Shown here: positions 15,308 through 55,551 of the stretch, one piece after another
Numbering within the stretch: the stretch's first letter is position 1
How the letters are laid out: each line of letters opens with the position of its first letter
NCBI RefSeq assembly: GCF_030718085.1
Contig: NZ_JAVAJF010000001.1
Location: 620,001-684,000, forward strand
Direction: 5' to 3'
Source: Marinobacter sp. MDS2
GTDB lineage: Bacteria; Pseudomonadota; Gammaproteobacteria; Pseudomonadales; Oleiphilaceae
DNA length: 64,000 nucleotides
Translations under genes and position numbers: made by a program
The notes under the pieces: generated by a model
What the model was told of the DNA's origin: nothing
Seen by the model: the letters and a program-made list of their open reading frames with translations, nothing else
The model's database searches: none

Positions 15308-15814
15308 TTATTTCTGCAACCGTTTGATGCGCTCACCCGGACTGATCACATCGGTCAGCCGGATACCGAACTTTTCATTCACCATAACCACTTCGCCATG
15401 CGCTATCAGCGTGCCGTTCACCAGAACGTCCAACGGCTCACCGGCCAAACGATCCAGTTCAATGACAGAGCCCTGATTCAGCTGTAACAGGTTTCGGATA
15501 GGAATTTGGGTGTTGCCCACTTCCATTGAGATGGTGACAGGGATATCCAGAATAACGTCCATATCGGGCGAGCCTGCGCCGCCAGAGGAACCACTGTCTT
15601 CCGAAAACTCTTCCATCGGGGCGGCGCGCACCTGCTGTTCCGCAGCATCTTCCGCTTTTCCACGCTCGGATTCGGCCATCGCCTCGGCCCAGGCATCCTC
15701 GGTAGACGCCTCGGTGTTCGCATCGCCGGATTCACCCATTGCCGCTTCCCACTCGGCTGCCAGCTTTTCGTCTTCCGTGAGCTCTTTATCGTCTTTTTTG
15801 TCGTCGTCAGCCAT
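15308..15814 (-). CDS. fliN: Flagellar motor switch protein FliN
   Basis: C-ring protein that binds CheY-P and helps dock export substrates. The 168-aa protein has an extended acidic N-terminal half rich in Asp, Glu and Ala, then the SpoA domain (DIPVTISMEVGNTQIPIRNLLQLNQGSVIELDRLAGEPLDVLVNG). The start overlaps the fliM end by 8 bp. The long N-terminal extension is common in gammaproteobacterial FliN and may carry a CheY-binding role. Confidence 0.96.
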   Translation of the reverse strand: MADDDKKDDKELTEDEKLAAEWEAAMGESGDANTEASTEDAWAEAMAESERGKAEDAAEQQVRAAPMEEFSEDSGSSGGAGSPDMDVILDIPVTISMEVGNTQIPIRNLLQLNQGSVIELDRLAGEPLDVLVNGTLIAHGEVVMVNEKFGIRLTDVISPGERIKRLQK

Positions 15815-16805
15815 TGCGTCCCACCTTCAGTTGTTTCTTCACCTTGGGCAATGCCGCCCTTTCATGAATCCTTAGCGCCAGTTTGCCGTCACGGGTGCCC
15901 ATTGTTGCTTTGTACACCGGAACGCCGTTGGCCGTTACCGTGAGATGATCAGCAATCTCGACAGGAATAACATCGCCCGCTTTCAGCTTGGCAATATCCC
16001 GCAGAGAGATCCTGCGCTGACAAACCGTGGTATTGATCGGCACGCTGATGTCTTTGATATCTTCCTGTAAGGCGTTGACCCAGCGTTCATCCACATCATC
16101 AATATCGCTCTGAACCCCGGCATCCAGCACCTCGCGGATCGGCTCAATCATGGCGTAAGGCATCGCGAGATGAAGTTCGCCTCCGCCGCCGTCCAATTCA
16201 ATATGAAAGGTGCTGACAACCACCACTTCACTCGGGCTGACAATATTGGCCATCGCGGGGTTAACTTCTGAACTCAGGTAGTCGAAGTCGATATTCAGAA
16301 CGGCTTGCCAGGCTTCTTTCATATCCTTGAAAACCTGATCCAGTACCATTTGCACGATCCGGTTTTCAGTCGGCGTGAATTCGCGCCCTTCAATTTTTGC
16401 GTGACGCCCCTCACCTCCAAAAAAGTTATCCACCAGCTTGAACACCAGCTTGGCGTCTAACACAAACAAGGAGGTACCACGAAGTGGGCGTACTTTGCAG
16501 AGGTTCAGACTGGTCGGCACGTAGAGCGTATGAACGTACTCACCGAACTTCATGATCTGGACACCGCCCGTCGATACATCCGCATTGCGGCGCAACAAGT
16601 TAAACAGACTGATCCGGGTGTAGCGGGCAAAACGCTCGTTGATCATTTCGAGCGTTGGCATGCGGCCACGGACGATACGATCCTGACTGGCAAGGTCGTA
16701 GTTTTTTACGCCAGTGTCATCGCTTTCATCATAGGTATCAATGTCGCCGTCATCCACACCGTGGAGGAGCGCATCGATTTCTTCCTGTGATAGTAAATCC
16801 TGCAT
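15807..16805 (-). CDS. fliM: Flagellar motor switch protein FliM
   Basis: C-ring protein that binds phospho-CheY and passes the switch signal to FliG. The 332-aa sequence starts with the CheY-binding helix (MQDLLSQEEIDALL), has the middle domain contacting FliG (including the GGEGRH loop) and a C-terminal SpoA domain (LRDIAKLKAGDVIPVEI). It is 24 bp downstream of fliL in the same operon. Confidence 0.97.
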   Translation of the reverse strand: MQDLLSQEEIDALLHGVDDGDIDTYDESDDTGVKNYDLASQDRIVRGRMPTLEMINERFARYTRISLFNLLRRNADVSTGGVQIMKFGEYVHTLYVPTSLNLCKVRPLRGTSLFVLDAKLVFKLVDNFFGGEGRHAKIEGREFTPTENRIVQMVLDQVFKDMKEAWQAVLNIDFDYLSSEVNPAMANIVSPSEVVVVSTFHIELDGGGGELHLAMPYAMIEPIREVLDAGVQSDIDDVDERWVNALQEDIKDISVPINTTVCQRRISLRDIAKLKAGDVIPVEIADHLTVTANGVPVYKATMGTRDGKLALRIHERAALPKVKKQLKVGRNG

Positions 16806-41498: not shown

Positions 41499-43258
41499 AA
41501 TTCCGGCCCCATCGAAAAGTGGACCCGCCAGCCGCCACCGAAAGACTCATTCAACCCTTCCGCAACATCAAGGCGCAAAGGCCCGACCGGACTGACCCAG
41601 CGGATCCCTACACCCACCCCTGTCGCTAACGGATCAAACACATCATCCACCGCGTTGCCTTCATCGATGAAGGCGGCAAGGCGCCAGTTCTTTATGAATT
41701 CATACTGGTACTCTGCACTTCCGACAATAAGATAGCGGCCACCCACCACATCACCGTCACTGTTTTTCGGTGACAACGATTCATAAGCGTAGCCACGAAC
41801 CGTTTGGTCGCCGCCGGCGAAGAAACGAAGAGACGGCGGCACGTCATCAAAATTATTCGTCGCCACCCCGCCAAAATTAAACCGAGCCAAAAAACGGTGC
41901 TTGTCCGCCAGGGTATAAAGGCCCCGGGCCAGAAAGTTCACATGCAGAATATCCGCATCCGACAGCGCCGCCCGGTGCGCACCCGTCACATCGACCTGCA
42001 GGCGGTAACCTTGAGACGGATCCAAAGGGGAATTGGAGTGCAACTTCGAATAACCGACGCTGGGCAGCAACAAACTGGAGGTGTCCTGTGTTTCTTCGCC
42101 GATGGTGTAGCGCTCACCTTCCCATCGTAACCCCAGAATCTGCATCCATCCGGTATCGAGCTGGTGGCGCCACTGTTGCCCCAGGGTCAAACGCTCGGAG
42201 GCCACGTTTTCGATTTCCTCACGCTGATAACCGGTACTCAATCGAATGGAGTCTGTCATCGGTGGATCCAGCGGCAGTTCATACCAACCCGAAATGCTCT
42301 GACGCAATTCCGACACCTCGGTGTCGAGCCCCCGACGATGCCCCATGGGATTTATATAGTGCTCTCGCCAGGTGCCACGAAACCTGGGCCCCACGTCGGT
42401 TGAGAAGCCTACACCCGCTGCAAGTGAACGTGGGTCTCGAGGCGTGAGATCGATGTTGATAGGAATAACCCGGTCTTCTGCATCGCTTGGCGAGGCATCC
42501 AGGTCCACTCCTGAAAAATAACCACTGTTGGAGAGGTCGCCGCTCAACTTGGCAACCTTGGCAGCATGAAACGGCTCACCGGGCTCAAAGGTCACAAACT
42601 GCTCCAGAAGCCGTTGTTCGAAGCCGTGCCCTTCCAGAAATGTGACCTCCCCAAGCCGGTAACGCTCGCCAGACTCGAAACTCAGATTGATGTCGGCAAT
42701 TTTTTCCGCCGGATCAACCCTCAACTCGCGCTTCTCATACTCGCCATCAAAGTAGCCCAGGCGCCGGGCCCTGTTGCTTATGCTGCTTCGAAGGTTGTCG
42801 TATTCTCCGTGGTTCAACACATCACCGACCCGCGGCTTTTCAGGCAGTCCATCAACAAACTCGGAATCCTTCGACCCCGGCCCGTGAATGTCCACGTTCC
42901 GCTGACGGACGCGCACCGGGGTACCGGGATCGACAGTGAGAATCAGCTCCGCCAGCCCCACATCGCCGTCATTCACCTCCCAGGTGATTTTCGGGTTGTA
43001 GTACCCCAATGCACGGAGGGCTTCTTTGGCCTGACCTACTGCCGTAGGAGCATATCGGCGCAGGCCATCTGCGGTGCGCCCTTCAACCTCGCCCAAAAAA
43101 ATGCGTGCGTTGTCTTCAAGAGCATCGTGATCGCCCTTCACCTGCACTTCAACCTGATTAGCCAGCACCAGCGATGGAAGACAGAGCAGGAGCAACGCTA
43201 TAGCCTTGAAAGCCGTCTCTTTTACTAAGAAAGGTGGCAGCATACGGTGTACCGGCAT
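41495..43258 (-). CDS. tamA: Translocation and assembly module outer-membrane protein TamA
   Basis: Omp85-family outer-membrane barrel. The 587-aa precursor has a signal peptide (AIALLLLCLPSLVLA), three POTRA-like domains in the first half and a C-terminal 16-strand barrel ending in a typical aromatic/hydrophobic strand (WRVHFSMGPEL), with the family motif RFFAGGDQTVRGYAYE. A second ATG five codons in (43243) is an alternative start. It is co-transcribed with tamB. Confidence 0.95.
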   Translation of the reverse strand: MPVHRMLPPFLVKETAFKAIALLLLCLPSLVLANQVEVQVKGDHDALEDNARIFLGEVEGRTADGLRRYAPTAVGQAKEALRALGYYNPKITWEVNDGDVGLAELILTVDPGTPVRVRQRNVDIHGPGSKDSEFVDGLPEKPRVGDVLNHGEYDNLRSSISNRARRLGYFDGEYEKRELRVDPAEKIADINLSFESGERYRLGEVTFLEGHGFEQRLLEQFVTFEPGEPFHAAKVAKLSGDLSNSGYFSGVDLDASPSDAEDRVIPINIDLTPRDPRSLAAGVGFSTDVGPRFRGTWREHYINPMGHRRGLDTEVSELRQSISGWYELPLDPPMTDSIRLSTGYQREEIENVASERLTLGQQWRHQLDTGWMQILGLRWEGERYTIGEETQDTSSLLLPSVGYSKLHSNSPLDPSQGYRLQVDVTGAHRAALSDADILHVNFLARGLYTLADKHRFLARFNFGGVATNNFDDVPPSLRFFAGGDQTVRGYAYESLSPKNSDGDVVGGRYLIVGSAEYQYEFIKNWRLAAFIDEGNAVDDVFDPLATGVGVGIRWVSPVGPLRLDVAEGLNESFGGGWRVHFSMGPEL

Positions 43259-43469
43259 CCAAACCAGATTGTTTTATGAAACGTGGAGTTAGACCTCGGA
43301 GTTTACCGGTCCCCCAACTCACGTGCCATGCCTGCAACACCAAATAAAGCGAGAATTCATAAGAAGTTGGACTTGAGCTGAACCCGCAAGAAAGTCGTCC
43401 CTGTTAAGCAAATAGGCTACCCTGTCATAGACTTATGACTGGTTCCCGCTTCACCCACAGGTACCGAGA

Positions 43470-44477
43470 ATGCTCAGGATCAACCGTGAAAACCTGAAAT
43501 CCAGCCATCAGATGATCTGGTTCCTTATAGACTTTGCAATGCTGGGGCTGCTGATCGTCAACCTGGCGTTCATTATCTGGGATTCCATCTATAACTTTGT
43601 TGCTGTGCAGAACCTGCTAAAAGACTATCTGCCCGCCGCGCAGTCTGCCTATCACCCCATTCACGAACGCTTTATCTTTTACGACATGATCTTCGTGTGG
43701 ATCTTCCTGAGCGAGTTCGTTGTCCGGTGGGGGTATTCTGTGAAGGCGAAGGTCTATGACCGCTGGTATTTCTACCCGTTCATCCATTGGTACGATCTGG
43801 TTGGCTGTATCCCCATCGGAAGTTTCCGTTTTCTGCGGGTATTGCGGGTTATTTCTATCGTATACCGCCTTCACCAGTACAAAATCATCGACTTCACCAA
43901 CACCCGCATCTACACCTTCCTTGCGTTTTATTTCGACGCGTTTATGGAAGAGCTTTCAGACCGGATCGTGATCAAGGTGTTGACTGGCGTTCAGCACGAG
44001 ATTCAACAAGGTTCTCCGCTGTTCGACCGAATCCAGAACGATATTCTATACCCCAGAAAAGCCATGCTCGCAGACTGGTTGTCTGACCGAGTTGCCCATG
44101 CCGCGGAGCAAGGTTATATGCCCAATCGAGGCGCGTTGCGAGCCTATCTGGAAGATCGGGTTGACCACGCTTTAAAGCAAAACCTGGAACTGTCCCGGCT
44201 CAAATACCTGCCGGTCGTCGGGCCGACCATTCAGGACACACTGGAAAATGCGGTGGGAGACATCGTCGCCAATGTCATACACCAGATACTTGAAGATCTT
44301 GCATCGTCGTCAAATCACGCGTTTATCGAGGACATCGTCAACGCCCTACTCCCCGACCCGGATGCAACGGCCGAAGAAGACAGCGATCAAGAGGCTTTGA
44401 TTTCGTTGATTAATGAAATAATCGACGCGATAAAGGGGCAGGTTCGAGTGAAGCATTGGCGGAAGAACCTGCCGTAA
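43470..44477 (+). CDS. Voltage-sensor-type membrane protein with large soluble C-terminal domain
   Basis: 335 aa. Four membrane segments are visible: S1 about 14-40, S2 about 66-88 (FIFYDMIFVWIFLSEFVVRW), S3 about 100-115 with Asp (WYDLVGCIPIG), and S4 about 118-138 with Arg at every third place (FRFLRVLRVISIVYRLHQYK). These match the voltage-sensor half of ion channels. No S5-pore-S6 follows; residues 150-335 are soluble and helical, with no selectivity filter. Often such genes are annotated ion transporter. Function is unknown; it could be a voltage-gated proton path or a membrane-potential sensor. Confidence 0.75.
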   Translation: MLRINRENLKSSHQMIWFLIDFAMLGLLIVNLAFIIWDSIYNFVAVQNLLKDYLPAAQSAYHPIHERFIFYDMIFVWIFLSEFVVRWGYSVKAKVYDRWYFYPFIHWYDLVGCIPIGSFRFLRVLRVISIVYRLHQYKIIDFTNTRIYTFLAFYFDAFMEELSDRIVIKVLTGVQHEIQQGSPLFDRIQNDILYPRKAMLADWLSDRVAHAAEQGYMPNRGALRAYLEDRVDHALKQNLELSRLKYLPVVGPTIQDTLENAVGDIVANVIHQILEDLASSSNHAFIEDIVNALLPDPDATAEEDSDQEALISLINEIIDAIKGQVRVKHWRKNLP

Positions 44478-44510
44478 CAGCAGGTTCAAACCGATTCAGT
44501 AAAAGCGGGA

Positions 44511-45167
44511 TTATACCGCCATCTCCGGCACATGATCCGGAACAATCAGAGGCCCACCGGTCTTTTCGGCAATCTCTTCAACAGAAACCCCCGGTGCCCG
44601 CTCTTTCAAAATGAAGGTACCGTTCTCGATTTCCAGATACGCCAAATCGGTCAGCACTCGTTTAATGCAGCCGGCCCCAGTCAAAGGCAGAGTGCACTTG
44701 CTTAGCAGCTTGGATTCACCCGTTTTCGAGGCGTGAGTCATGGTAACGATGATGTTGTCTGCACCGGCCACCAAATCCATCGCACCGCCCATTCCTTTGA
44801 CCAGCTTCCCCGGAACCATCCAAGACGCGATGTTGCCCTGCACATCCACCTCAAACGCACCCAGTACCGTCAAATCAATGTGCCCACCGCGAATCATTGC
44901 AAACGATTCTGCCGAATCAACAATTGATGCTCCCACACGCGCCGTGACGGTTTGCTTGCCGGCATTGATCATGTCGGCGTCGATTTCTTCTTCCGTTGGA
45001 AACGCGCCCATCCCAAGCAGCCCGTTCTCCGACTGCAGCATTACCGATATATCGTCGGGCACATAATTGGCCACCAAGGTAGGGATACCAATTCCTAAAT
45101 TGACATAAAAACCATCTTTCAGTTCGCTGGCGACGCGCTTTGCCATCTGCTCTCGTGATAAAGCCAT
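44511..45167 (-). CDS. scoB: 3-oxoacid CoA-transferase subunit B
   Basis: Beta subunit of a class I CoA-transferase that moves CoA from succinyl-CoA to acetoacetate or a similar oxoacid. The ATG at 45167 gives 218 aa (MALSREQMAKRVASELKDG). The GIGIPTLV segment and the catalytic Glu in LQSENGLLGMG are present. The partner subunit ends 37 bp upstream. It could equally be a short-chain (AtoA-type) transferase, so the substrate is not settled. Confidence 0.9.
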   Translation of the reverse strand: MALSREQMAKRVASELKDGFYVNLGIGIPTLVANYVPDDISVMLQSENGLLGMGAFPTEEEIDADMINAGKQTVTARVGASIVDSAESFAMIRGGHIDLTVLGAFEVDVQGNIASWMVPGKLVKGMGGAMDLVAGADNIIVTMTHASKTGESKLLSKCTLPLTGAGCIKRVLTDLAYLEIENGTFILKERAPGVSVEEIAEKTGGPLIVPDHVPEMAV

Positions 45168-45204
45168 GTGATTCTCCCCGGTTTTAATGAGTTGTTGTCC
45201 GTTA

Positions 45205-45903
45205 TCAGGCCCTGATGGTGCGCTGCTCGATACGCTTCTCAAAAGTGCCGCAAATCAGGCGATCGACATAGATACCTGGCGTATGGATCTCTGCCGGATC
45301 CAGCGTTCCTGCTTCTACAATTTCTTCCACCTCAACCACGGTGATCTTTCCTGCTGTGGCCATCAGTGGGTTGAAGTTTTTGGCGGTATGTCGATAAATC
45401 ACGTTGCCATAGGTATCGGCTTTCCAGCCTTTCACAATGGCAATATCACCGGTGATTGCCTGCTCCAAAACGTAGTTACGGCCATCGAACTCACGCACTT
45501 CTTTACCTTCCGCCACTTGCGTGCCATACCCCGTTGCGGTGAAAAAAGCAGGGATGCCTGCACCACCCGCACGCACACGCTCTGCGAGATTTCCTTGGGG
45601 GGTCAACTCAACCTCTAATTCGCCGTTCAACAGCTGCTGTTCGAACAACTTGTTCTCACCTACATAGGACGCAATCATGCGGCTGATCTGGCGGTCTTCC
45701 AGCAACAAGCCCAAACCGAAACCGTCCACACCACAGTTATTGGATACCACGGTCAGGTCCCGATTGCCTCGGCGCTTGATCTCAGCGATCAGGTTTTCCG
45801 GGATACCGCACAAACCAAAGCCACCGGCCAGAATAGTCATACCATCGGCCAAGCCTTCCAAAGCCTCCTCGTAAGAAGACACGCGCTTATCGAATCCAGC
45901 CAT
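45205..45903 (-). CDS. scoA: 3-oxoacid CoA-transferase subunit A
   Basis: Alpha subunit of the same transferase. With the ATG at 45903 it has 232 aa ([18 protein letters not shown]), with the CoA-transferase glycine-rich stretch [18 protein letters not shown] and the later [21 protein letters not shown] typical of succinyl-CoA:3-ketoacid transferases. It is the first gene of a two-gene operon and is divergent from a LysR gene that probably controls it. In-frame residues upstream of 45903 carry no homology. Confidence 0.92.
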
Positions 45904-45970
45904 TTGTACCTCGTCGTTTCTTGTTAATGAGCACTCATTATTACGAACGACTTTTATTTGTTTAATCGAA

Positions 45971-45996
45971 TTTTTCGGAGCAATTATTTCGAAAAA
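45971..45996. promoter_or_regulatory. Inverted repeat between scoA and lysR
   Basis: TTTTTCG and CGAAAAA separated by 12 bp in the 146-bp divergent spacer. LysR regulators bind loose inverted repeats of this sort in such spacers, so it is a likely operator for the neighbouring LysR protein. Only position and symmetry support it. Confidence 0.5.
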
Positions 45997-46049
45997 CAAA
46001 ACAATCGTGCGCTAGAATGTTACTCATACTCATCACAACGCCGAGTCCC

Positions 46050-46940
46050 ATGAACGTAAAACAACTCAGATCATTTCTTGCCGTTGCCGAAACCCTCAGT
46101 TTCGTTATCGCCAGCGAAAGACTGCACACATCCCAATCGGCGTTGAGCATGGCCATTAAGGGTCTTGAGGATAGTTTGGGCGGGAAGGTGTTCGTAAGAA
46201 CCACTCGGTCGGTGCAGTTAACACCGGAGGGAGAGTCACTACTACCGCTGGCAAGGAAGTTACTTGCAGACTGGGATTCCGTTCATCACGAACTGCAACA
46301 ACGCTTTTCTCTTGGCATTGGCAAGGTCAGTGTTGCGGCTATGCCTTCGTTTGCCATCAACGTACTGCCAAGAGCCCTGAAGCAATTTCGGGCTTTGCAT
46401 CCGAACATTTCAGTGCAAGTGCACGATGTTATTAATGAGGATGTCATCGATATGGTTCAGATCGGTGAAGTAGAACTGGGAATCGGCTTCAAGCCCTACC
46501 CGGCATCGCTGGCCTTCGAACCTTTGTTTAACGACCAGTTCGTGGCGATTGTTCCGCCCGAAACCGTAGCTGACAGCGAAGACTGCGTGGAGTGGGATGC
46601 TCTTTTAGAGCACCCATTTATATCGCTGCAAAAACCCTCAGCCGTGCATGCCTACCTTGAAGATAGCTTGCGAGATAGCAATCGGGTTCTGAAAACCGAA
46701 CTGGAAGCCCATCAACTTTCGACCGTGGGCAAGATGGTCGCCACCGGCCTGGGGGTTAGCGTTGTACCCGCACTCTGCACCCCGCAGATGGAAGCTTTGG
46801 GGGCGAAGGTTTTGAAATTGAAAGACGCTCGTATTGAGCAACCGGTAGGGCTTATCTGGCATCGGGAGCGTGAGCGGTCGGCAGCCACTCGTGCGCTCTA
46901 CGAAGTACTCAAGACAGCCCGGGCCGATCGGTCAGGATAA
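46050..46940 (+). CDS. LysR family transcriptional regulator
   Basis: 296 aa from the ATG at 46050 (MNVKQLRSFLAVAETLSF), with the N-terminal winged helix-turn-helix (SERLHTSQSALSMAIKGLEDSLG) and a periplasmic-binding-like effector domain. The earlier in-frame start at 46017 adds eleven hydrophobic residues before the usual N-terminus and is rejected. It is divergent from scoAB, the likely target; the effector could be a ketoacid. Confidence 0.9.
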   Translation: MNVKQLRSFLAVAETLSFVIASERLHTSQSALSMAIKGLEDSLGGKVFVRTTRSVQLTPEGESLLPLARKLLADWDSVHHELQQRFSLGIGKVSVAAMPSFAINVLPRALKQFRALHPNISVQVHDVINEDVIDMVQIGEVELGIGFKPYPASLAFEPLFNDQFVAIVPPETVADSEDCVEWDALLEHPFISLQKPSAVHAYLEDSLRDSNRVLKTELEAHQLSTVGKMVATGLGVSVVPALCTPQMEALGAKVLKLKDARIEQPVGLIWHRERERSAATRALYEVLKTARADRSG

Positions 46941-47095: not shown

Positions 47096-47728
47096 TTGAG
47101 GCTCGTTTGTATTTCGGACACCCACAGCCTGCACGGAAAAATACCGGACATACCGGCCGGCGACGTCCTGATTCATGCCGGCGACTGCCTTGGTGCCGGC
47201 ACGTTGCAAAATGTGGAAGATCTTAATAGCTGGCTCGGCACCCTGCCCCACTTGCACAAAATCGTGATTGCCGGCAATCATGATTGGTCCTTCCAGGAAA
47301 CACCAGAAATAGCCAAAGAAGCGCTCACTAACGCAACATACCTAGAGGATAGCGGCGTTGTAATCGACGGGGTTAGATTTTGGGGATCGCCTTGGACTCC
47401 CACATTCCTAGACTGGGCATTCATGCTGGATCGCGGGCAGGCCTTACACGATCGGTGGATACAGATTCCCGACGACACCGACATACTCATTACGCACGGC
47501 CCACCAAAAGGTATCGGGGATGAGGCCTCCTTGGGATTTCAGTGCCAAAATGTAGGGTGCGTAGACTTACTGCACCGCATTCAACAGTTGCAGTTGAAAG
47601 CGCATATTTTTGGCCACATTCATGAAGGCTATGGAGAGTACATTCTGGGTAAAACCCAGCTGATTAATGCCAGCACATGCACCGTTCGGTACGAACCAAC
47701 GAACCCACCGATTGTTCTGGATATCTGA
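47096..47728 (+). CDS. Calcineurin-like metallophosphoesterase (MPPED-like)
   Basis: 210 aa from a TTG with GGAG in front. All family metal motifs are seen: DxH (SDTHSLHG), GD (HAGDCLG), GNHD (IAGNHDW), the H in THGPP, and GHIH (FGHIHEGYG). The overall pattern resembles the MPPED1/MPPED2 group, single-domain phosphodiesterases found in many bacteria. It is solitary and the substrate is unknown. Confidence 0.85.
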   Translation: MRLVCISDTHSLHGKIPDIPAGDVLIHAGDCLGAGTLQNVEDLNSWLGTLPHLHKIVIAGNHDWSFQETPEIAKEALTNATYLEDSGVVIDGVRFWGSPWTPTFLDWAFMLDRGQALHDRWIQIPDDTDILITHGPPKGIGDEASLGFQCQNVGCVDLLHRIQQLQLKAHIFGHIHEGYGEYILGKTQLINASTCTVRYEPTNPPIVLDI

Positions 47729-48732: not shown

Positions 48733-49076
48733 TCCCTCCCCCAAAGAATCAACCGATACCTATATAAACTTTAGCAGGCGATTAATACATACAGCCATCA
48801 AAAACAGCTCAGATGACCGGCAATCTTCCTATTCCCCTGCAGACAGCACCGTTCACGGTCCTACTAGGCAGATTCGGGGCCCGTATTTCGGTAGGCTCCA
48901 ATTCACATATTCAACGCCGGTAATTCCCCGTCACCGCTGCGGAAAAACCTAATCCTTTACACTGCCCTCTTCCGCAGTGACCAAGCCGCACCTGCCAACC
49001 TAGACTAAAGTCCAATATAAACACATGGGGCACCAATGATCTTATTTGGTATACCAAATAATTAAAAGGAAATACC
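48733..49076. other. 344-bp intergenic region before the malonate cluster
   Basis: No gene is visible on either strand. It holds an 8-bp inverted repeat, CTGCGGAA/TTCCGCAG, at 48937-48944 and 48970-48977, a TATAAA box at 49016-49021 that could be the minus-10 of the downstream operon, and the 20-bp palindrome listed separately. Confidence 0.6.
49042..49061. promoter_or_regulatory. Perfect 20-bp palindrome, likely GntR operator of the malonate operon
   Basis: TTATTTGGTATACCAAATAA is its own reverse complement. Its core TGGTATACCA matches the TGGT-N-ACCA type sites of FadR-family GntR regulators. It sits between a TATAAA box (49016) and the ribosome site (49064) of the first gene, where a bound repressor would block transcription. 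The GntR gene of the cluster is the obvious binder. Confidence 0.8.
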
Positions 49077-50180
49077 ATGGATCTCATGCAACAGTTTGTT
49101 GGTGAGCATTTCGTCCGTCAGGATTCGCTGGTACCTCACCTTGAGGGCACCGAGCTTTCCATCACCACTTGGTCCGCACGCTTCCTTGAGCAGCCTGTCG
49201 TCCTTGTGCAGTCTGAAGAGACTCCCAACAAAGGCGCCCTCGGCACTGTGGAGATTGACCTGATCTGTTCCGCTTTCGCCTACGCCGCTGAAAAGGGCTT
49301 GCCGGTGGTTCTCTACCTGAACTCTTCCGGGGCACGGCTCAACGAGGGAGATGGGATCCAGGCCTCGTTCCGTAAGCTTTTGAATGCTGCCCTTGCCTTC
49401 CGCTCCGAAGGACACCGCATTGTAGTGTTAATGGGTAAGAACGTTTTTGGTGGCGCCAGCTTGCTGGCGATGAGCGGACACACGCGCATTTATAGCGAAG
49501 CCACCCGCGTTTCCATGACGGGCCCCCGTGTAATGGAGGGGCAGCCAGAAAACCAGTCTCACGACATCCGCTCGATCATTGCTGCAGAAAACCGTGCTCG
49601 AAACGATGCTTTCGGCGTGTGGGCTGAGAGCTCGGATGACGTTAAGACACAGCTACATCAGGCGCTTTCACACGAGGACTCCGCCCATGGCGGCGCAGAA
49701 CTGGTGAAAGCGTCGGAGCTGCCCTTTGAATCCTCTCGAGTAAAGGAGGATCCATCCGGCATTAACTGCACTGGTACTCAGCCGCCCCAAATCAACGACT
49801 TGCTGGCACTCATCTTGGCGATAGCCAAATGGGACCACTCGGATGAGTTAGCGCTTACCTGTGAGTGGTCATGCCACAGCCTCAATGCCGCTGACGAAAA
49901 CGCATACCAAAGCTACTGGCTCTTTGCGGTGTCTGAAACCATTTACCGCAAACAAAAGTATGGCTGCCAGGTCACCTGTCACTTTGCCAAAGATGTCTCG
50001 GGGGGGCTCTACATAGCGCTCGCTGCCTCGGCAACAGAGGTCACGGCGGCCCCGGGTGTAGGTGTACAGGCTTTACCGTATGGAATCGTGGACCAAATCG
50101 TCACATCGGCAACGGCCGAGGAAAAAGAAATTGAGCTCATTGAGCTGGAAATAATTGATCGAATCGAAGGACCTCAATAA
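49077..50180 (+). CDS. Fused MdcD/MdcE-like carboxyltransferase, putative malonyl-CoA decarboxylase
   Basis: 367 aa with two crotonase-fold halves. The first (about 1-215) resembles malonate decarboxylase beta subunit MdcD: NSSGARLNEG at 82-91, FGGASLLAMSG at 124-134 and TGPRVMEG at 148-155. The second (about 235-367) resembles the gamma subunit MdcE: DVSGGLYIALAA at 306-317 and GVQALPYGIV at 329-338. MdcD plus MdcE normally total about 520-560 aa, so this is shortened. No MdcA, MdcC (acyl carrier) or biotin protein is nearby. The next gene makes malonyl-CoA, so I infer direct decarboxylation of malonyl-CoA to acetyl-CoA. Alternative: an acyl-CoA carboxylase relative acting on another thioester. 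Confidence 0.75.
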   Translation: MDLMQQFVGEHFVRQDSLVPHLEGTELSITTWSARFLEQPVVLVQSEETPNKGALGTVEIDLICSAFAYAAEKGLPVVLYLNSSGARLNEGDGIQASFRKLLNAALAFRSEGHRIVVLMGKNVFGGASLLAMSGHTRIYSEATRVSMTGPRVMEGQPENQSHDIRSIIAAENRARNDAFGVWAESSDDVKTQLHQALSHEDSAHGGAELVKASELPFESSRVKEDPSGINCTGTQPPQINDLLALILAIAKWDHSDELALTCEWSCHSLNAADENAYQSYWLFAVSETIYRKQKYGCQVTCHFAKDVSGGLYIALAASATEVTAAPGVGVQALPYGIVDQIVTSATAEEKEIELIELEIIDRIEGPQ

Positions 50181-51694
50181 TGAACAAGAACTTCTTTAAC
50201 AGAATTCTGGAATCCGCCATTCAAGCCGGTGCAAAGCCTTTCCTAGTGGGCCCGTCCGGGGAGGAGTATTCCTACAACGACCTACTGGAAATCACCGCAA
50301 AGTTTGCCGAAATCCTTCGACAGCTTGGAGTACAGCCGGGTGACCGGGTTGCCGCCCAGATCCATAAAAGCCCACAAGGATTCTTCCTGTACCTAGCCAC
50401 GTTAAGGGCCGGGGCCATCTTTGTACCTTTGAATACCGCCTACAAAGCCCGGGAAATCGAGTATTTCCTGAGTGACAGCAAGCCTGCGGTATTTTTCTGC
50501 TCCGAGGTCAGCGACAAGGAGAACCAGGAAGCGATTGAGGCCCATGTTAAGTTTGGCTCAGCACTCTTTGACGAGGCTGGCCATTGCGCTCTGTTGTCCG
50601 CCGAGGTGGCTTGTGAGCCTAATGCAGCGGCAGCGGAGCGAGCCGGTTCTGATGTCGCCATCATTATTTACACCTCGGGAACAACCGGCCAGCCCAAGGG
50701 CGCGATGCTCACCCACGACAACCTCGCATCGAACGGTCAGTCATTGACAGAAGGCTGGAAGTTTACGTCCTCCGACGTACTGCTTCATGCTCTGCCCATA
50801 TTCCACGCCCATGGTTTGTTTATCTCGACCCATTGCGTACTTCTCTCGCAGAGCAAAGTGATCTTTCTAGAGAAGTTCGATGCCAGAGTGGTGCTGGAAA
50901 AGCTGCCTGAAAGTACCGTGATGATGGGTGTTCCCACCTTCTATACGCGCCTGTTAGCGGACCCCGACTTTAATAAAGATGTAACCCACTCTGTTCGCCT
51001 GTTCATCTCCGGCTCTGCACCACTGCTTGAGGAATCCAGCCAGCAATTCCTGGAGCGGACCGGCCACGTGATCCTCGAGCGCTATGGCATGACCGAATCC
51101 GCCATCATCACCAGCAACCCTTACGACAAAGAGCGCAAAATTGGCTCAGTTGGCTTGCCGATCGAAGGCGTTGAAGTCCGAGTGACGGCTGAGGATGGAT
51201 CCGCCGCCAAGATTGGCGAAGTGGGCGGCATTGAGATCAAAGGCCCGGCGGTGATGAAGGGTTACTGGAACAAGCCCGAAAAAACCGCCGAAGAGTTCAC
51301 CGGTGATGGCTGGTTTAAAACCGGTGACCTGGGACGGCTGGACGACGAGGGTTACCTCTTCATTGTCGGCCGCGGTAAGGATCTAGTCATCTCAGGTGGG
51401 TACAACGTGTACCCCAAGGAAGTGGAATTGGTTATCGACACCGCGCCGGGTGTGAAAGAATCGGCCGTTATCGGCGTCTCCCATCCAGACTTTGGCGAAG
51501 CCGTTGTCGCCGTGGTTGTGTTGGATGCCCCTTCGGAGCAAATCTCTGAAAACGTCATTAGCCTCTGCAAAGAAAATCTTGCCAGTTACAAGGTGCCAAA
51601 AGCTGTGAAGGTAGTTGAAGAGTTGCCTCGCAACGCCATGGGCAAAGTTGTTAAGGCCCAGCTGAGGACGGACAACGCCAAACTCTTTAAGTGA
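50180..51694 (+). CDS. matB: Malonyl-CoA synthetase (MatB-like AMP-forming ligase)
   Basis: Activates malonate (perhaps methylmalonate) with ATP and CoA through an acyl-adenylate. The 504-aa protein has the P-loop YTSGTTGQPKG at 164-174, ISGSAPLLEE at about 274, ERYGMTE at 298-304, the GWFKTGD and GRGKDLVISGG motifs and the catalytic Lys region NAMGKVVK near the end. The ISGSAPL and ERYGMTE segments are those of MatB rather than of other acyl-CoA ligases. It overlaps the upstream gene by one base (TAATG), so both proteins are made together. Confidence 0.87.
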   Translation: MNKNFFNRILESAIQAGAKPFLVGPSGEEYSYNDLLEITAKFAEILRQLGVQPGDRVAAQIHKSPQGFFLYLATLRAGAIFVPLNTAYKAREIEYFLSDSKPAVFFCSEVSDKENQEAIEAHVKFGSALFDEAGHCALLSAEVACEPNAAAAERAGSDVAIIIYTSGTTGQPKGAMLTHDNLASNGQSLTEGWKFTSSDVLLHALPIFHAHGLFISTHCVLLSQSKVIFLEKFDARVVLEKLPESTVMMGVPTFYTRLLADPDFNKDVTHSVRLFISGSAPLLEESSQQFLERTGHVILERYGMTESAIITSNPYDKERKIGSVGLPIEGVEVRVTAEDGSAAKIGEVGGIEIKGPAVMKGYWNKPEKTAEEFTGDGWFKTGDLGRLDDEGYLFIVGRGKDLVISGGYNVYPKEVELVIDTAPGVKESAVIGVSHPDFGEAVVAVVVLDAPSEQISENVISLCKENLASYKVPKAVKVVEELPRNAMGKVVKAQLRTDNAKLFK

Positions 51695-51730
51695 TGCCTC
51701 CGTCAACACGCGAACAATAATGAGGTTTTT

Positions 51731-52246
51731 ATGATTATAAGAACAATAGATAAAGTAGTAGGCAGGGTTGGTGACTTAAGTTTCCATCTCTCCCTGCTGG
51801 TGACGGTCTTCCTTGTCGTGGCGATCATCTGGGAAGTGGTCAACCGTTTTTTGTTCGGTACCTCTTCTGTCTGGGTGTCAGAGGTTTCCGGCTACCTCGT
51901 AGCATCTATCCTGTTCCTTGCCGCTGGAAGGGTCTACCGAGAGGGTGGCCATGTGAGCATGTCGATTTTTATCGACATGCTCACCGGCGCACCTAAATTT
52001 GCCTTGCTGGCACTGATTGATGTTTTGGTCCTAGGCTTAGCACTGGTGGTCGGCTACGCCACGTACGACATGGCACTGCTGTCGTACCAGCTCAATTGGC
52101 GGTCATCTACCACGCTGGCAATGCCTCTGTTTATTCCCCAAATGTTCATGCCAATTGGCGCTGCCGTCCTGGCCCTCGAAGCTATCAGGCTACTCGTTCG
52201 TAACATCTGCGGCGTTTGCCGAACAATGCAAGGAGCACAGGCATGA
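51731..52246 (+). CDS. dctQ: TRAP transporter small membrane subunit (DctQ)
   Basis: 171 aa with four membrane spans, typical of DctQ, the small integral subunit of tripartite periplasmic transporters. The conserved Trp/Glu pattern WEVVNRFLFGTSSVWVSEVSGYL is visible. The stop codon overlaps the start of the large subunit (ATGA). In this cluster the likely cargo is malonate or a related dicarboxylate; rhizobial matPQM is the precedent. Confidence 0.93.
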   Translation: MIIRTIDKVVGRVGDLSFHLSLLVTVFLVVAIIWEVVNRFLFGTSSVWVSEVSGYLVASILFLAAGRVYREGGHVSMSIFIDMLTGAPKFALLALIDVLVLGLALVVGYATYDMALLSYQLNWRSSTTLAMPLFIPQMFMPIGAAVLALEAIRLLVRNICGVCRTMQGAQA

Positions 52247-53532
52247 TGGTCTTGATTGTTATCGCATCCCTGCTGATCATGCTCGCACTGGGCACGCCAG
52301 TCGCATTCTCATTAGGAATCTCGGCCCTGCTGGGCATCGTTTATATCGGCGGCTTTAGTGCTTCGTTTGCAGTGTCTGACATCATCTGGGGGACCGTCTC
52401 CGAGTTCGTTCTGGTTGCGATTCCCTTGTTTGTGTTAATGAGTGAGATCATCAACAGCTCGGGCGTCGGCAAGGATCTTTTCCGGAGTGTGGATAAGTGG
52501 TTTGGCTGGTTGCCAGGTGGGCTGGCCATCAGCACCATCGTTGCCGGGGCAATCTTTGGCGCCGTCAGCGGAACCGCCGTCGGTGTTGCGGCAGTGATCG
52601 GTAGCGTAGCTATTCCCGAAATGATGAAGCGCAACTACAGCAACGAGATGTCTTCGGGCACCGTAGCTGCGTCAAGTGGCTTGGGCATGATCATCCCTCC
52701 GAGCTTGCCGTTGATCATGTACGGTGTTGTGACCGAAACATCGATTGCCGACCTGTTCTCGGGTGCCCTGATACCCGGAATCGTCATCGTAGTAATGATG
52801 AGCGCGTACGTTGCATTTATCTCACTGAAAGAACGTAAAAAACCAGGTTTCGTGCGTATCGATTCGACCGCAGGCGAGCGTAAGGACCTGGGCTTTGGCA
52901 AATCGTTGGCCCTTGCTGGTCCGGTTATCTTCCTCATCGTCGTGGTAATTGGCAGCATCTATAACGGCATAGCCACCCCCACAGAGGCGGCCGCTATCGG
53001 TGTGTTCGGGGCCCTCGTGATTTCAGCGATGAAGGGCTCTCTGTCCTTTAAAAATCTCTCAGAAGCGCTGATCAAATCTACCAAGACCAACTGCATGCTG
53101 CTGGCTATCCTCGCCTTCGCCATGGTCTTCAGCTATGCCCTCAGCAATGCGCAGGTACCCCAGCAAGTTGCGGAAATGGTGATCTCGGCGGAGCTCAACA
53201 AGTGGACTTTCTTCATCATCGTGATGGTGATGCTGTTCTTCTTGGGCATGCTGCTCGATGCCATCTCTCTAGTGATCATTGCCGTGCCGATTATCTTTCC
53301 GGCGATGCTTGCCTACGGCTTTGACCCCATTTGGCTGGGTGTCGTGATCATGGTGAACATGTGCTTTGCCGTGATAACGCCGCCAGTCGGTCTATGTCTT
53401 TACGTTGTACGTGATAGTGTTGCCGGGCTCACCTTATCGCAGGTTGTTCGAGGCACCATCCCGTTCATCGTTCTGTACGCTGCAGCGATCGTCGTTCTAT
53501 CGATGTTCCCGTCGCTGACAGCCCTTTATTAA
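52243..53532 (+). CDS. dctM: TRAP transporter large membrane subunit (DctM)
   Basis: 429 aa from the ATG at 52243, with AGGAG at correct spacing. About 12 membrane segments carry the sodium-driven translocation path; the family region VTETSIADLFSGALIPG and the C-terminal VITPPVGLCLYVV motif are present. The in-frame start at 52216 would overlap dctQ needlessly. It works with DctQ and the binding protein DctP encoded next. Confidence 0.95.
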   Translation: MMVLIVIASLLIMLALGTPVAFSLGISALLGIVYIGGFSASFAVSDIIWGTVSEFVLVAIPLFVLMSEIINSSGVGKDLFRSVDKWFGWLPGGLAISTIVAGAIFGAVSGTAVGVAAVIGSVAIPEMMKRNYSNEMSSGTVAASSGLGMIIPPSLPLIMYGVVTETSIADLFSGALIPGIVIVVMMSAYVAFISLKERKKPGFVRIDSTAGERKDLGFGKSLALAGPVIFLIVVVIGSIYNGIATPTEAAAIGVFGALVISAMKGSLSFKNLSEALIKSTKTNCMLLAILAFAMVFSYALSNAQVPQQVAEMVISAELNKWTFFIIVMVMLFFLGMLLDAISLVIIAVPIIFPAMLAYGFDPIWLGVVIMVNMCFAVITPPVGLCLYVVRDSVAGLTLSQVVRGTIPFIVLYAAAIVVLSMFPSLTALY

Positions 53533-53566
53533 GTGAACAATCTACAAAAACAATGAGGATTAACTA

Positions 53567-54553
53567 ATGTCTCTAGGTAAATTTTTCTCACTCGTGCTGC
53601 TGGCGTCAGCCATATCTGTCTCGGCTAACGCGAAAGAAGTTATTCGACTAGGCCACTATTTCCCGACAGAAGACTTCCGCGGAAAAACGGCCCAGTACTT
53701 TGCGGATTCCCTGGATTCCAAGACTTTTGATGTGAAGGTCTTTCCTTCGGAGTCCCTTGTTAAAGGCCGAGACGGATTTATGGCCACCGCCAGAGGCACG
53801 GTGGATGTCTACAGCCTATTTGGCGGCTACGCAGTAGGCAGTGTGGATCTCATGCGGATCTTCACCATCCCGTTCCCGCCGAAGTCGATGAGCGATGCCA
53901 AGCTTCTGGAGTTTGCCAACGACCCGCGTGTGCTCGAAACCCTGGGAACGCAGTTTGAAAGATCACAGGTCAAACTGCTGGGCTTCATCAATTCCTCTGG
54001 CGATACTACTGTGTTCATGTCCGACCATGTTAAGGGCCTTGAAGGCTTTTCTGGCAAACGGATTCGGGGTGTGGGCGGATACACAGATCCTGCCCTACAG
54101 GACCTGGATGCCTCTGTCGTCTTTATGAGTGCGGCTGAGCAGTTCCTGCAACTACAAACCGGCGGCGTTGATGGCGTAATCACCACCAACTCTTCCTATG
54201 CTAACCTGGGTTTGTCTGAAGTTGCCCCGGCACGGCTGGACCGCTCCATTGTCCGTACGCCCTACGCTCTGGTGATGAACCTGCGCAAATGGAATCGTTT
54301 GGATGAGTCTGAACGCCAGGCAATTCGGGAAGCTGTTCAAAAGACCATCAAGTGGTCTGCAGACAACTTTGCGGAAGAATCTAAGCGCCTCGCTGACCTA
54401 GTTGAAGAGCAGTCCACGTCTGTGATCGAGCTTGAGGGTGAAGACGAACAACGTGTTAACGCACTGTCGACAAAATACCTGAGCGAGTTTTCCAAATCCT
54501 ACGGTAAAGATGCGGACCTGTTGGTAAAGGTCTTTAAAGAATACAATAAGTAA
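53567..54553 (+). CDS. dctP: TRAP transporter substrate-binding protein (DctP)
   Basis: 328-aa periplasmic protein with signal peptide (KFFSLVLLASAISVSANA) and the DctP fold. The SGKRIRGVGGYTDPALQDLD region and the helix with the conserved Arg are typical; the Arg usually binds the substrate carboxylate. The gene is last in the operon and is followed by a strong terminator. The cargo is inferred from the neighbours. Confidence 0.93.
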   Translation: MSLGKFFSLVLLASAISVSANAKEVIRLGHYFPTEDFRGKTAQYFADSLDSKTFDVKVFPSESLVKGRDGFMATARGTVDVYSLFGGYAVGSVDLMRIFTIPFPPKSMSDAKLLEFANDPRVLETLGTQFERSQVKLLGFINSSGDTTVFMSDHVKGLEGFSGKRIRGVGGYTDPALQDLDASVVFMSAAEQFLQLQTGGVDGVITTNSSYANLGLSEVAPARLDRSIVRTPYALVMNLRKWNRLDESERQAIREAVQKTIKWSADNFAEESKRLADLVEEQSTSVIELEGEDEQRVNALSTKYLSEFSKSYGKDADLLVKVFKEYNK

Positions 54554-54565
54554 CCACCACTCTCG

Positions 54566-54600
54566 ATGCCCCTTGGTCTTTTGCCCAAGGGGCATTTTTT
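54566..54600 (+). terminator. Rho-independent terminator after dctP
   Basis: 11-bp stem (ATGCCCCTTGG/CCAAGGGGCAT) with an 8-nt loop and a run of six Ts. It lies 12 bp after the dctP stop and before the ribosome site of the GntR gene, so the regulator is made at a lower level or from its own promoter. Confidence 0.93.
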
Positions 54601-54624
54601 CGCTAATGGAGAAGGGAGCTTTCT

Positions 54625-55269
54625 TTGGACAGGGATCAAATACAAAAAATCTTGGAAGAGCGGCTTCTGGATCGTTTCTATGTTTCCGGTGACCGGCTGA
54701 ACGAACGAAGCCTGGCAGCGGAGTTTGGAGTGTCGCGAACCCCGATTAGGGAGGTTTTGGCACGCCTGCAGAGCGATGGGTTGGTCGAATACCGAGAACG
54801 AAGAGGGGTGTTCGTGAAAAAGGTTAACCTCAGCTATGTGCTGTCCCTTTTGGAGCTTCTTGCTGTATTAGAGTCATCCTGCGCAAGGCTGGCTGCACGC
54901 TCTGGCAGTGTTGAAGACAAACACAAACTCCTAGCTTTAGCAAAACTCACTATCGAGGGTGCCGAAACAGGTGTGGAGAAATACTCAGAATCAAACAAGC
55001 AGTTTCACGAATTGATGTACCACATGACGGGTAACGATGAATTAGTGAACACGGTATTCAATGCACGAAGAAAAGTAGCCCCATATCGTCGACAGATTCA
55101 CCGAGTTGCCGGGATGACCTCCGAATCTGCGCATGAACACGTCTCGATTGCGGAGGCGATCATGCAAAGGAATGAAAAACTAGCGGCAGATTTGATGTTC
55201 CATCATCTGGACATGAGCCGCAGTGAATTCACGCCTTTTATTGCCTCGTTAGGCAAGGTTTTTTCTTGA
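54625..55269 (+). CDS. GntR family regulator of the malonate cluster (MatR-like)
   Basis: 214 aa from a TTG (GAAGGGA before it) with an N-terminal winged helix-turn-helix (DRFYVSGDRLNERSLAAEFGVSRTPIREVLARLQSDGLVEYRERRGVFVKK) and a C-terminal helical FCD ligand domain (conserved Asp and His residues bind metal). This is the FadR subfamily to which MatR of rhizobia belongs. It probably binds the palindrome at 49042 and is released by malonate or malonyl-CoA. It follows a terminator, so it may also have its own promoter or some read-through. Confidence 0.87.
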   Translation: MDRDQIQKILEERLLDRFYVSGDRLNERSLAAEFGVSRTPIREVLARLQSDGLVEYRERRGVFVKKVNLSYVLSLLELLAVLESSCARLAARSGSVEDKHKLLALAKLTIEGAETGVEKYSESNKQFHELMYHMTGNDELVNTVFNARRKVAPYRRQIHRVAGMTSESAHEHVSIAEAIMQRNEKLAADLMFHHLDMSRSEFTPFIASLGKVFS

Positions 55270-55551
55270 ATTTGGATCCCAGTGTTTTCGTTTTCTTGCC
55301 TGATCGGCCTTTCGATCCAGTCTAACCATTCTGCGTATTTGACGGAGGTTGTTTGTAATCCCCCCAATTCCTAATCGGCTATTTGAGTAGATAACGGAAA
55401 ATCCTGTTCTAACGCCCTTCATTTCTCGCGAGAATTACTCAGCGGCAAACGATTAAAGCTGAGCCTCTAGATAAATCATCGTAACGAAAGTGCCATTTAG
55501 AGTCGTTAGCATCCCATGAAAGATACCCTATACGCTGATTTGAGAGTTCCT

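What the first reader, a model, noticed from the sequence alone, without database searches (positions are those of the whole stretch)
49042..55269. Malonate cluster with a fused carboxyltransferase in place of MatA
Seen: a fused MdcD/MdcE-like protein, a MatB-like malonyl-CoA synthetase, a DctQ/M/P TRAP transporter and a FadR-type GntR regulator lie in one direction, with one-base or ATGA overlaps inside the operon. Known: rhizobial mat operons use MatA (malonyl-CoA decarboxylase) with MatB and a transporter; mdc operons use MdcA, acyl-carrier MdcC and MdcD/E, without MatB. Inferred: here a biotin-free, ACP-free carboxyltransferase decarboxylates malonyl-CoA made by MatB, a third route that I do not know from the literature.
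Basis: partly seen in the sequence, partly recalled or inferred. Interest (0 to 1): 0.85.

Follow-up and report, generated by a model that had tools for sequence, protein, structure and literature searches.

The report
CoA-ester decarboxylase replacing MatA
A rare marine-bacterial gene set for using malonate-like acids appears to have swapped its usual decarboxylase for an unrelated, compact enzyme of the carboxyltransferase fold, which suggests another way to remove CO2 from malonyl-type CoA esters.

Summary
In detail: a 367-aa carboxyltransferase-fold protein (CT), a malonyl-CoA-synthetase homologue (MatB), DctQMP and a GntR/FCD regulator form one cassette (49044-55269) in a Marinobacter genome. 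The CT is rare (21 entries found among 5.8 billion proteins). The six genes recur in 4 of 4 loci read, in three chromosomal settings, with a conserved palindrome upstream. In 124 genomes of the genus, 22 MatB genes were found: 19 directly follow MatA, 3 follow CT, none both, none neither. The window's genome shows no MCD/MatA and no MdcA. CT and MatB divergence correlate (r=0.99, 8 pairs). The CT's N half resembles MdcD and AccD and keeps the oxyanion-hole positions; its C half fits by fold, with His where MdcE has catalytic Gln100. Best reading: a single-chain, biotin- and ACP-free decarboxylase of the CoA ester that MatB makes, replacing MatA non-orthologously. No activity is shown. The substrate need not be malonate: the cassette-type MatBs have an altered acyl pocket (A/SAI, against T/TNM in the genus's MatA operons), and two of four carrier genomes own an MCD elsewhere. 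New variant of a known kind.

The parts
49044..49059 (.). palindrome ATTTGGTATACCAAAT, likely operator of the GntR/FCD regulator
   Evidence: 14-bp core exact at 49045-49058, the only match in the window at up to 2 mismatches (shuffles: mean 0.16; 15 of 100 had at least one); kept in 4 of 4 cassette loci with at most one change; the exact 12-bp core occurs in 7 of 115 loci, all of them copies of this site from three genomes. Binding is inferred.
49077..50180 (+). CT: 367-aa single-chain carboxyltransferase-fold protein, proposed acyl-CoA decarboxylase in the place of MatA
   Evidence: dN/dS 0.19-0.25
50180..51694 (+). MatB-type malonyl-CoA synthetase with altered acyl pocket (A210, S307-A308-I309)
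   Evidence: NCBIfam PRK07514 707 bits, cut-off 558; solved malonyl-CoA synthetase 4fuq_A E 4e-151; pocket
51731..52246 (+). DctQ, TRAP small permease
   Evidence: PF04290 81.9 bits, cut-off 28.3
52243..53532 (+). DctM, TRAP large permease (ATGA overlap with DctQ)
   Evidence: PF06808 and TIGR00786 over cut-off; overlap
53567..54553 (+). DctP, TRAP solute-binding protein; 25% identical to DctP of the MatA-type operon L064
   Evidence: PF03480 111.7 bits
54565..54596 (+). terminator-like hairpin between DctP and GntR
   Evidence: 12-pair stem with T tail; the count of such sites in the region, 9, is near the shuffle mean of 7.0
54625..55269 (+). GntR-family regulator with FCD domain (TTG start assumed)
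   Evidence: PF00392 and PF07729 over cut-off

Best explanation
The cassette is a horizontally moving catabolic unit for malonate or a close malonate relative. DctPQM imports the acid and MatB makes the CoA ester with ATP. The single-chain CT then decarboxylates the free CoA ester, with no biotin and no acyl carrier protein, and so does the job that MatA (MCD) does in the usual mat operon. The GntR regulator controls the unit from a palindrome just upstream of CT. Shown: gene content, recurrence, positional replacement of MatA, absence of MCD and MdcA matches in this genome, predicted fold, kept oxyanion-hole positions, purifying selection. Inferred: the decarboxylation itself, the order of steps, the substrate (malonyl-CoA giving acetyl-CoA is most likely, a C2-substituted malonyl-CoA next), horizontal movement, and the regulator-operator pair.
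Against: No activity measured. The window CT passes no NCBIfam cut-off. Whether the N half is nearer to the biotin-independent MdcD or to AccD is not settled: MdcD leads, AccD and PccB lead in the profile search of solved structures (2f9i_B E 2e-6 against MdcD 5vip_B 0.0025), and over the 20 members the best AccD E-value (2.1e-13) is as good as the best MdcD one (4.7e-13). The C half is only weakly MdcE-like (hhalign probability 0.8%; the best local match of an MdcE profile shown lies in the N half), and MdcE's catalytic Gln100 is His267 here (20 of 20 CTs; Gln in 5 of 5 MdcEs). G031 and G114 carry an MCD elsewhere. The cassette DctP is only 25% identical to DctP of the MatA-type operon.
Confidence: 0.67

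Rival explanations
1. The cassette takes a C2-substituted malonate (for example methyl- or ethylmalonate); CT decarboxylates the alkylmalonyl-CoA, which MatA would not take.
For: The 19 MatBs directly behind MatA in the genus and one Halomonas MatB in the same 13-kb stretch as MatA have T and TNM in 20 of 20. All 31 MatBs read with MatA in the same stretch have Met at 309 (20, 5, 6). Sites 210 and 309 align with T208 and M307 of the solved MatB 4fuq (R. palustris by recall), equal by an offset of one to T207/M306 of the mutant MatB T207G/M306I used to prepare malonyl-CoA analogues (passages; the offset is my inference, and that the mutant takes bulkier malonates is recalled). The cassette persists beside an MCD in two genomes.
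Against: A/SAI also occurs in 18 of the 106 other MatB homologues listed (one of them, P0078, falls into the CT-linked clade; the context of the rest is unknown), and MatA-linked MatBs vary at 210 and 307-308 (I or V; TGM, AGM, TAM), so the pocket is no proof. No gene in the cassette points to another acyl-CoA product.
Confidence: 0.3
2. CT is a transcarboxylase: it moves the carboxyl group of malonyl-CoA to an acceptor (another acyl-CoA or a biotin protein) rather than releasing CO2.
For: Fold of carboxyltransferases, with transcarboxylase 12S among the fold matches; the N half scores about as well against AccD as against MdcD over the family.
Against: No biotin carrier or biotin carboxylase among the six genes; the position taken is that of MatA.
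Confidence: 0.12
3. CT is no longer a decarboxylase (regulatory or structural role), and malonyl-CoA made by MatB feeds fatty-acid synthesis or, in some hosts, the MCD elsewhere.
For: Two of four carriers have an MCD elsewhere; Gln100 replaced. [quoted passage not shown]
Against: 50 invariant columns over 20 sequences, including the oxyanion-hole positions; dN/dS 0.19-0.25; two carriers have no MCD match.
Confidence: 0.1

Closest known systems
mat operon (MatA malonyl-CoA decarboxylase, MatB, TRAP or other carrier, GntR) of rhizobia and Marinobacter
   Same: MatB homologue (51% to L064), TRAP transporter, GntR regulator, decarboxylase gene directly before matB with a 4-base overlap (L064; S. 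meliloti L124)
   Different: decarboxylase is an unrelated protein (no BLASTP match of CT to MatA at E<=10); gene order differs, GntR of L064 is on the other strand; DctP (25%) and DctQ (26%) far diverged; different MatB pocket
Biotin-independent malonate decarboxylase MdcD-MdcE (PDB 5VIP, 5VIT, 5VJ1)
   Same: crotonase/carboxyltransferase fold pair, oxyanion-hole and CoA-contact positions, no biotin; MdcD-MdcE alone acts on malonyl-CoA (PMC5534430)
   Different: one compact chain of 367 aa instead of two subunits (281-311 and 233-272 aa in the five operons); no Mdc partner genes in the cassette; Gln100 is His; partner is MatB
AccD-AccA / PccB carboxyltransferases
   Same: fold; the domain pairing of the model resembles AccA-AccD in one chain (9kkm_A); N half as close to AccD as to MdcD in some searches
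   Different: no biotin partner genes in the cassette, no zinc-finger N-terminus (recalled for AccD), much shorter

Membership tests
MatA / malonyl-CoA decarboxylase (PF05292) | MCD domain in the gene before matB | tested here: not met
   no PF05292 match in CT at E<=1; no match in genome G000 while 41 of 124 genomes of the genus ring
Mdc malonate decarboxylase holoenzyme | MdcA acyl-carrier transferase in the genome | tested here: not met
   PF16957 0 matches in G000; the control rings in E. coli
Mdc malonate decarboxylase holoenzyme | acyl carrier MdcC with MdcB/MdcG | not tested
   none among the six genes; the genome was not searched for them
MdcD (TIGR03133 / NF005530) | equivalog score over cut-off | tested here: not met
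   window CT 44.8 of 278 and 46.8 of 228 bits; 20 of 20 members match these models weakly, best E 4.7e-13, and 19 of 20 match AccD, best E 2.1e-13
MdcD-MdcE type carboxyltransferase (works like) | oxyanion-hole and CoA positions of MdcD | tested here: met
   A86, L88, G126 aligned and invariant in 20 of 20; R144 is Lys in P0016, P0018 and P0020
MdcD-MdcE type carboxyltransferase (works like) | MdcE Gln100 and Ser142 | tested here: not met
   His267 in 20 of 20 at Gln100; the Ser142 column is Gly309 (next to invariant Ser308), but Ser142 is Ala in 2 of 5 MdcEs too; the C-half alignment itself is weak
Carboxyl transferase superfamily | fold | tested here: met
Biotin-dependent decarboxylase/transcarboxylase | biotin carrier and partner subunits in the operon | tested here: not met
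   no such gene among the six
MatB malonyl-CoA synthetase (PRK07514) | subfamily score over cut-off | tested here: met
   707 against 558
MatB malonyl-CoA synthetase (PRK07514) | malonate as best substrate | not testable with these tools
   needs assay; pocket differs

The most novel reading that the evidence does not exclude
The cassette is a dedicated pathway for C2-substituted malonates: a MatB with a naturally altered acyl pocket (Ala, Ser-Ala-Ile) activates an alkylmalonate, and a single-chain, biotin- and ACP-free carboxyltransferase-fold enzyme with an active-site His decarboxylates the alkylmalonyl-CoA, a substrate class and an enzyme type not known together.
Probability: 0.27. Interest if true: 0.8.

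Novelty: new variant of a known kind. Interest (0 to 1): 0.64.

Why it matters
Malonyl-type CoA esters are known to be decarboxylated by the MCD fold (MatA) and, through an acyl carrier, by Mdc. A minimal one-chain enzyme of the carboxyltransferase fold acting on the free CoA ester would be a further solution and a clean case of non-orthologous replacement inside an operon. It would show how little of a carboxyltransferase is needed for decarboxylation, and could be a useful catalyst for malonyl-CoA or alkylmalonyl-CoA. The claim is directly testable with two purified proteins.

Tried and rejected
MCD tested first in G000 alone gave no control ring; repeated over the genus it rang in 41 of 124, so the absence in G000 counts. 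MdcE family PF06833 rang over its cut-off in 0 of 145 order genomes and 0 of 14 controls, so it is no test of absence. Plasmid records show no CT at E<=1e-5; at E up to 10 the best matches are annotated or unannotated MdcD, AccD and PccB-like places. Viral contigs: none. The neighbourhood of the Halomonas sp. GT copy could not be read: CT and MatB there are linked by the same named genome and contig length (4,158,464 bases), and three metagenome pairs by equal longest-contig length only. The genome-contig scan used the single protein and found 2 loci; the cap left none for the alignment. I first took MdcE Ser142 to match Ser308; the four-way MAFFT check moved it to Gly309. I first read A210/I309 as unique to the cassette; searches show such pockets in other MatBs, which lowered the substituted-malonate reading. 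I first wrote that the N half is nearest to MdcD; searches do not bear that out, so I lowered the main confidence from 0.70 to 0.67 and raised the transcarboxylase rival from 0.10 to 0.12. A Fisher test on genome counts (p=1) is uninformative and not used. Most rows of the VIA list cover residues 1-202 only; a family missing from that list is no evidence. Foldseek alignments over both domains have rmsd 14-21 A in the rows shown, that is, the two domains do not superpose together on those chains. Rows dropped or spoiled: second fragment of the G066 MCD left out; S. fredii L114 MatB (332-aa open frame) is but left out; the L002 GntR comparison failed because I cut the wrong frame (the ORF is at 15536-16192); one of eight AccD picks (L024) looks like a wrong frame; L144 MatB was read from an inner Met. 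Not run: Rfam, phrogs and padloc searches.
Full report
Observation. The window is C1:620001-684000 of a 3.45-Mb genome (G000, 10 contigs, completeness 100). I take it as Marinobacter because genomes that the tool puts in the same genus match named Marinobacter contigs by length. Six genes run in one direction from 49077 to 55269: CT, MatB, DctQ, DctM, DctP, GntR/FCD. MatB passes the NCBIfam malonyl-CoA synthase cut-off (707 against 558 bits) and the transporter and regulator pass Pfam cut-offs. The CT barely reaches Pfam Carboxyl_trans (22.7 against 22.3); its best NCBIfam match is MdcD, far below cut-off (46.8 against 228), ahead of AccD (34.8).

Rarity. A word-based search of 5.8 billion proteins (clustered at 90%) gave 17 relatives of the CT among 5737 candidates; the alignment search gave 21, some of them fragments, among the 8000 candidates that were scored. 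Full-length copies occur in 3 of 124 genomes of the genus (the other 78 matching genomes show only N-domain matches, by frame length mostly AccD), 2 of 390 order genomes, 1 of 116 in the family of G353 and 1 of 369 class genomes, the window's own.

The cassette looks mobile. Window, L001 (M. litoralis), L002 (G114) and L034 (G353) all hold the six genes in the same order. DNA similarity covers 48942-55366 against L001 and 48957-55273 against L002. In L001 the cassette is 96% identical, while the backbone is 85.5% at 41912-46917 and 72% at 47105-47728. Against the stretches fetched for L002 and L034, window 39001-64000 matches in and just upstream of the cassette only. CT dN/dS is 0.25 and 0.19 against L001 and L002. 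Upstream of CT, the palindrome ATTTGGTATACCAAAT and the block TAGACTAAAGTC are kept in all four with at most one change each. The exact 12-bp core is found in 7 of 115 loci, all of them copies of this site from three genomes. In the window the 14-bp core is unique at up to two mismatches, but 15 of 100 shuffles also held at least one such match, so it is the conservation that speaks. I take it as the operator of the GntR protein (inference).

Replacement of MatA. In the usual Marinobacter mat operon (L064) the order is GntR (other strand), DctP, DctQ, DctM, MatA, MatB, with MatA and MatB overlapping by four bases. MCD (PF05292) rings in 41 of 124 genomes of the genus and MatB (E<=1e-110) in 22 of 124. 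Each of the 22 MatB genes has directly upstream, on the same strand and within 300 bases between matches, MatA (19) or CT (3), never both and never neither. The remaining 23 MCD genes, one in each of 23 genomes, stand without MatB. In the five that I read (L058, L059, L060, L061, L065) they stand beside a short-chain reductase, an acyl-CoA dehydrogenase and a semialdehyde-dehydrogenase-like gene (named by search only for L058). G000 and G353 have no MCD match; G031 and G114 have one of this second kind. MdcA has no match in G000; MdcC was not searched for. CT and MatB identities correlate over eight pairs (r 0.99; 1 of 10000 permutations reaches it). Four of the eight pairs were read, one is linked by named genome and contig length, and three metagenome pairs by equal contig length only.

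Mechanism. Isolated MdcD-MdcE decarboxylates free malonyl-CoA (K0.5 100 uM, kcat 2.3 per s, PMC5534430 section read). A CT of this type beside MatB could therefore do without acyl carrier and prosthetic group. Shown are gene content, position, conservation and predicted fold; decarboxylation, substrate and regulation are inferred.

Substrate. MatBs linked to CT carry Ala210 and Ser-Ala-Ile at 307-309 in 8 of 8 (four read; four linked by contig), as do all 15 of the closest MatBs. The 19 MatBs behind MatA in the genus and one Halomonas MatB carry Thr and Thr-Asn-Met in 20 of 20, as do five alphaproteobacterial ones directly behind MatA. Of 13 further class loci, six have a MatA match in the fetched stretch; their MatBs have Ile or Val with Thr-Gly-Met, Ala-Gly-Met or Thr-Ala-Met, so only Met309 is common to all 31. 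The seven without MatA have V/TGM (2), T/TNM (2), V/TSI (1) and V/TGI (2). Positions 210 and 309 align with T208/M307 of the solved MatB 4fuq, which by an offset of one would be T207/M306 of the T207G/M306I mutant used to prepare malonyl-CoA analogues (passages; offset inferred, purpose of the mutant recalled). Against this, A/SAI also occurs in 18 of 106 other listed MatB homologues whose neighbours I could not read, among them Collimonas and Janthinobacterium; one of the 18, P0078, groups with the CT-linked clade. [quoted passage not shown] I keep malonyl-CoA as most likely and a substituted malonyl-CoA as the main rival.

Print. Searches (listings seen) showed no title or abstract start that describes a carboxyltransferase-type protein beside matB; most subscription journals are not held. 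Papers: PMC5534430 abstract and four sections; PMC8044089, PMC13351777, PMC6572756, PMC6164871 and PMC6542682 passages only; all others listing only.

Verdict. It is a new variant of a known kind: malonate-type catabolism through MatB with a non-orthologous, carboxyltransferase-fold decarboxylase.

Noticed in passing
L058 8642-14016, L059, L060, L061, L065: A second kind of MCD gene in Marinobacter stands without MatB, next to an acetoacetyl-CoA-reductase-like SDR, an acyl-CoA dehydrogenase and a succinate-semialdehyde-dehydrogenase-like gene (named by search for L058 only): perhaps a C3 route that ends in malonyl-CoA.
   Followed up: partly
L150 2257-8004: In an unnamed class member (G652) a TRAP transporter, a TSUP-like permease (name recalled) and MatB stand together with no MatA or CT match in the fetched stretch: another MatA-less MatB operon.
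   Followed up: partly
L120 572-5470, L123 587-5488: Stand-alone MatB genes in Azospirillum plasmids lie beside a LodA/GoxA-type CTQ oxidase; in L125 and L126 they lie beside valine-catabolism genes; all four have a T/TGM pocket.
   Followed up: no
L064 11698-12453: The MatA-type operon of G091 is followed by an EutA / arylmalonate-decarboxylase-like gene (below both cut-offs), with no counterpart in the CT cassette.
   Followed up: no
window 44511-45999: A two-subunit CoA-transferase (name recalled from the translations) with a divergent LysR-type gene lies about 3 kb upstream; no DNA match to it in the stretches fetched for L002 and L034, so it is probably not part of the cassette.
   Followed up: no
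L001 6882-9667: In M. litoralis small genes that look like nucleotidyltransferase and Xre/RES toxin-antitoxin genes (recalled) lie directly upstream of the cassette, where the window has sequence without a DNA match.
   Followed up: no
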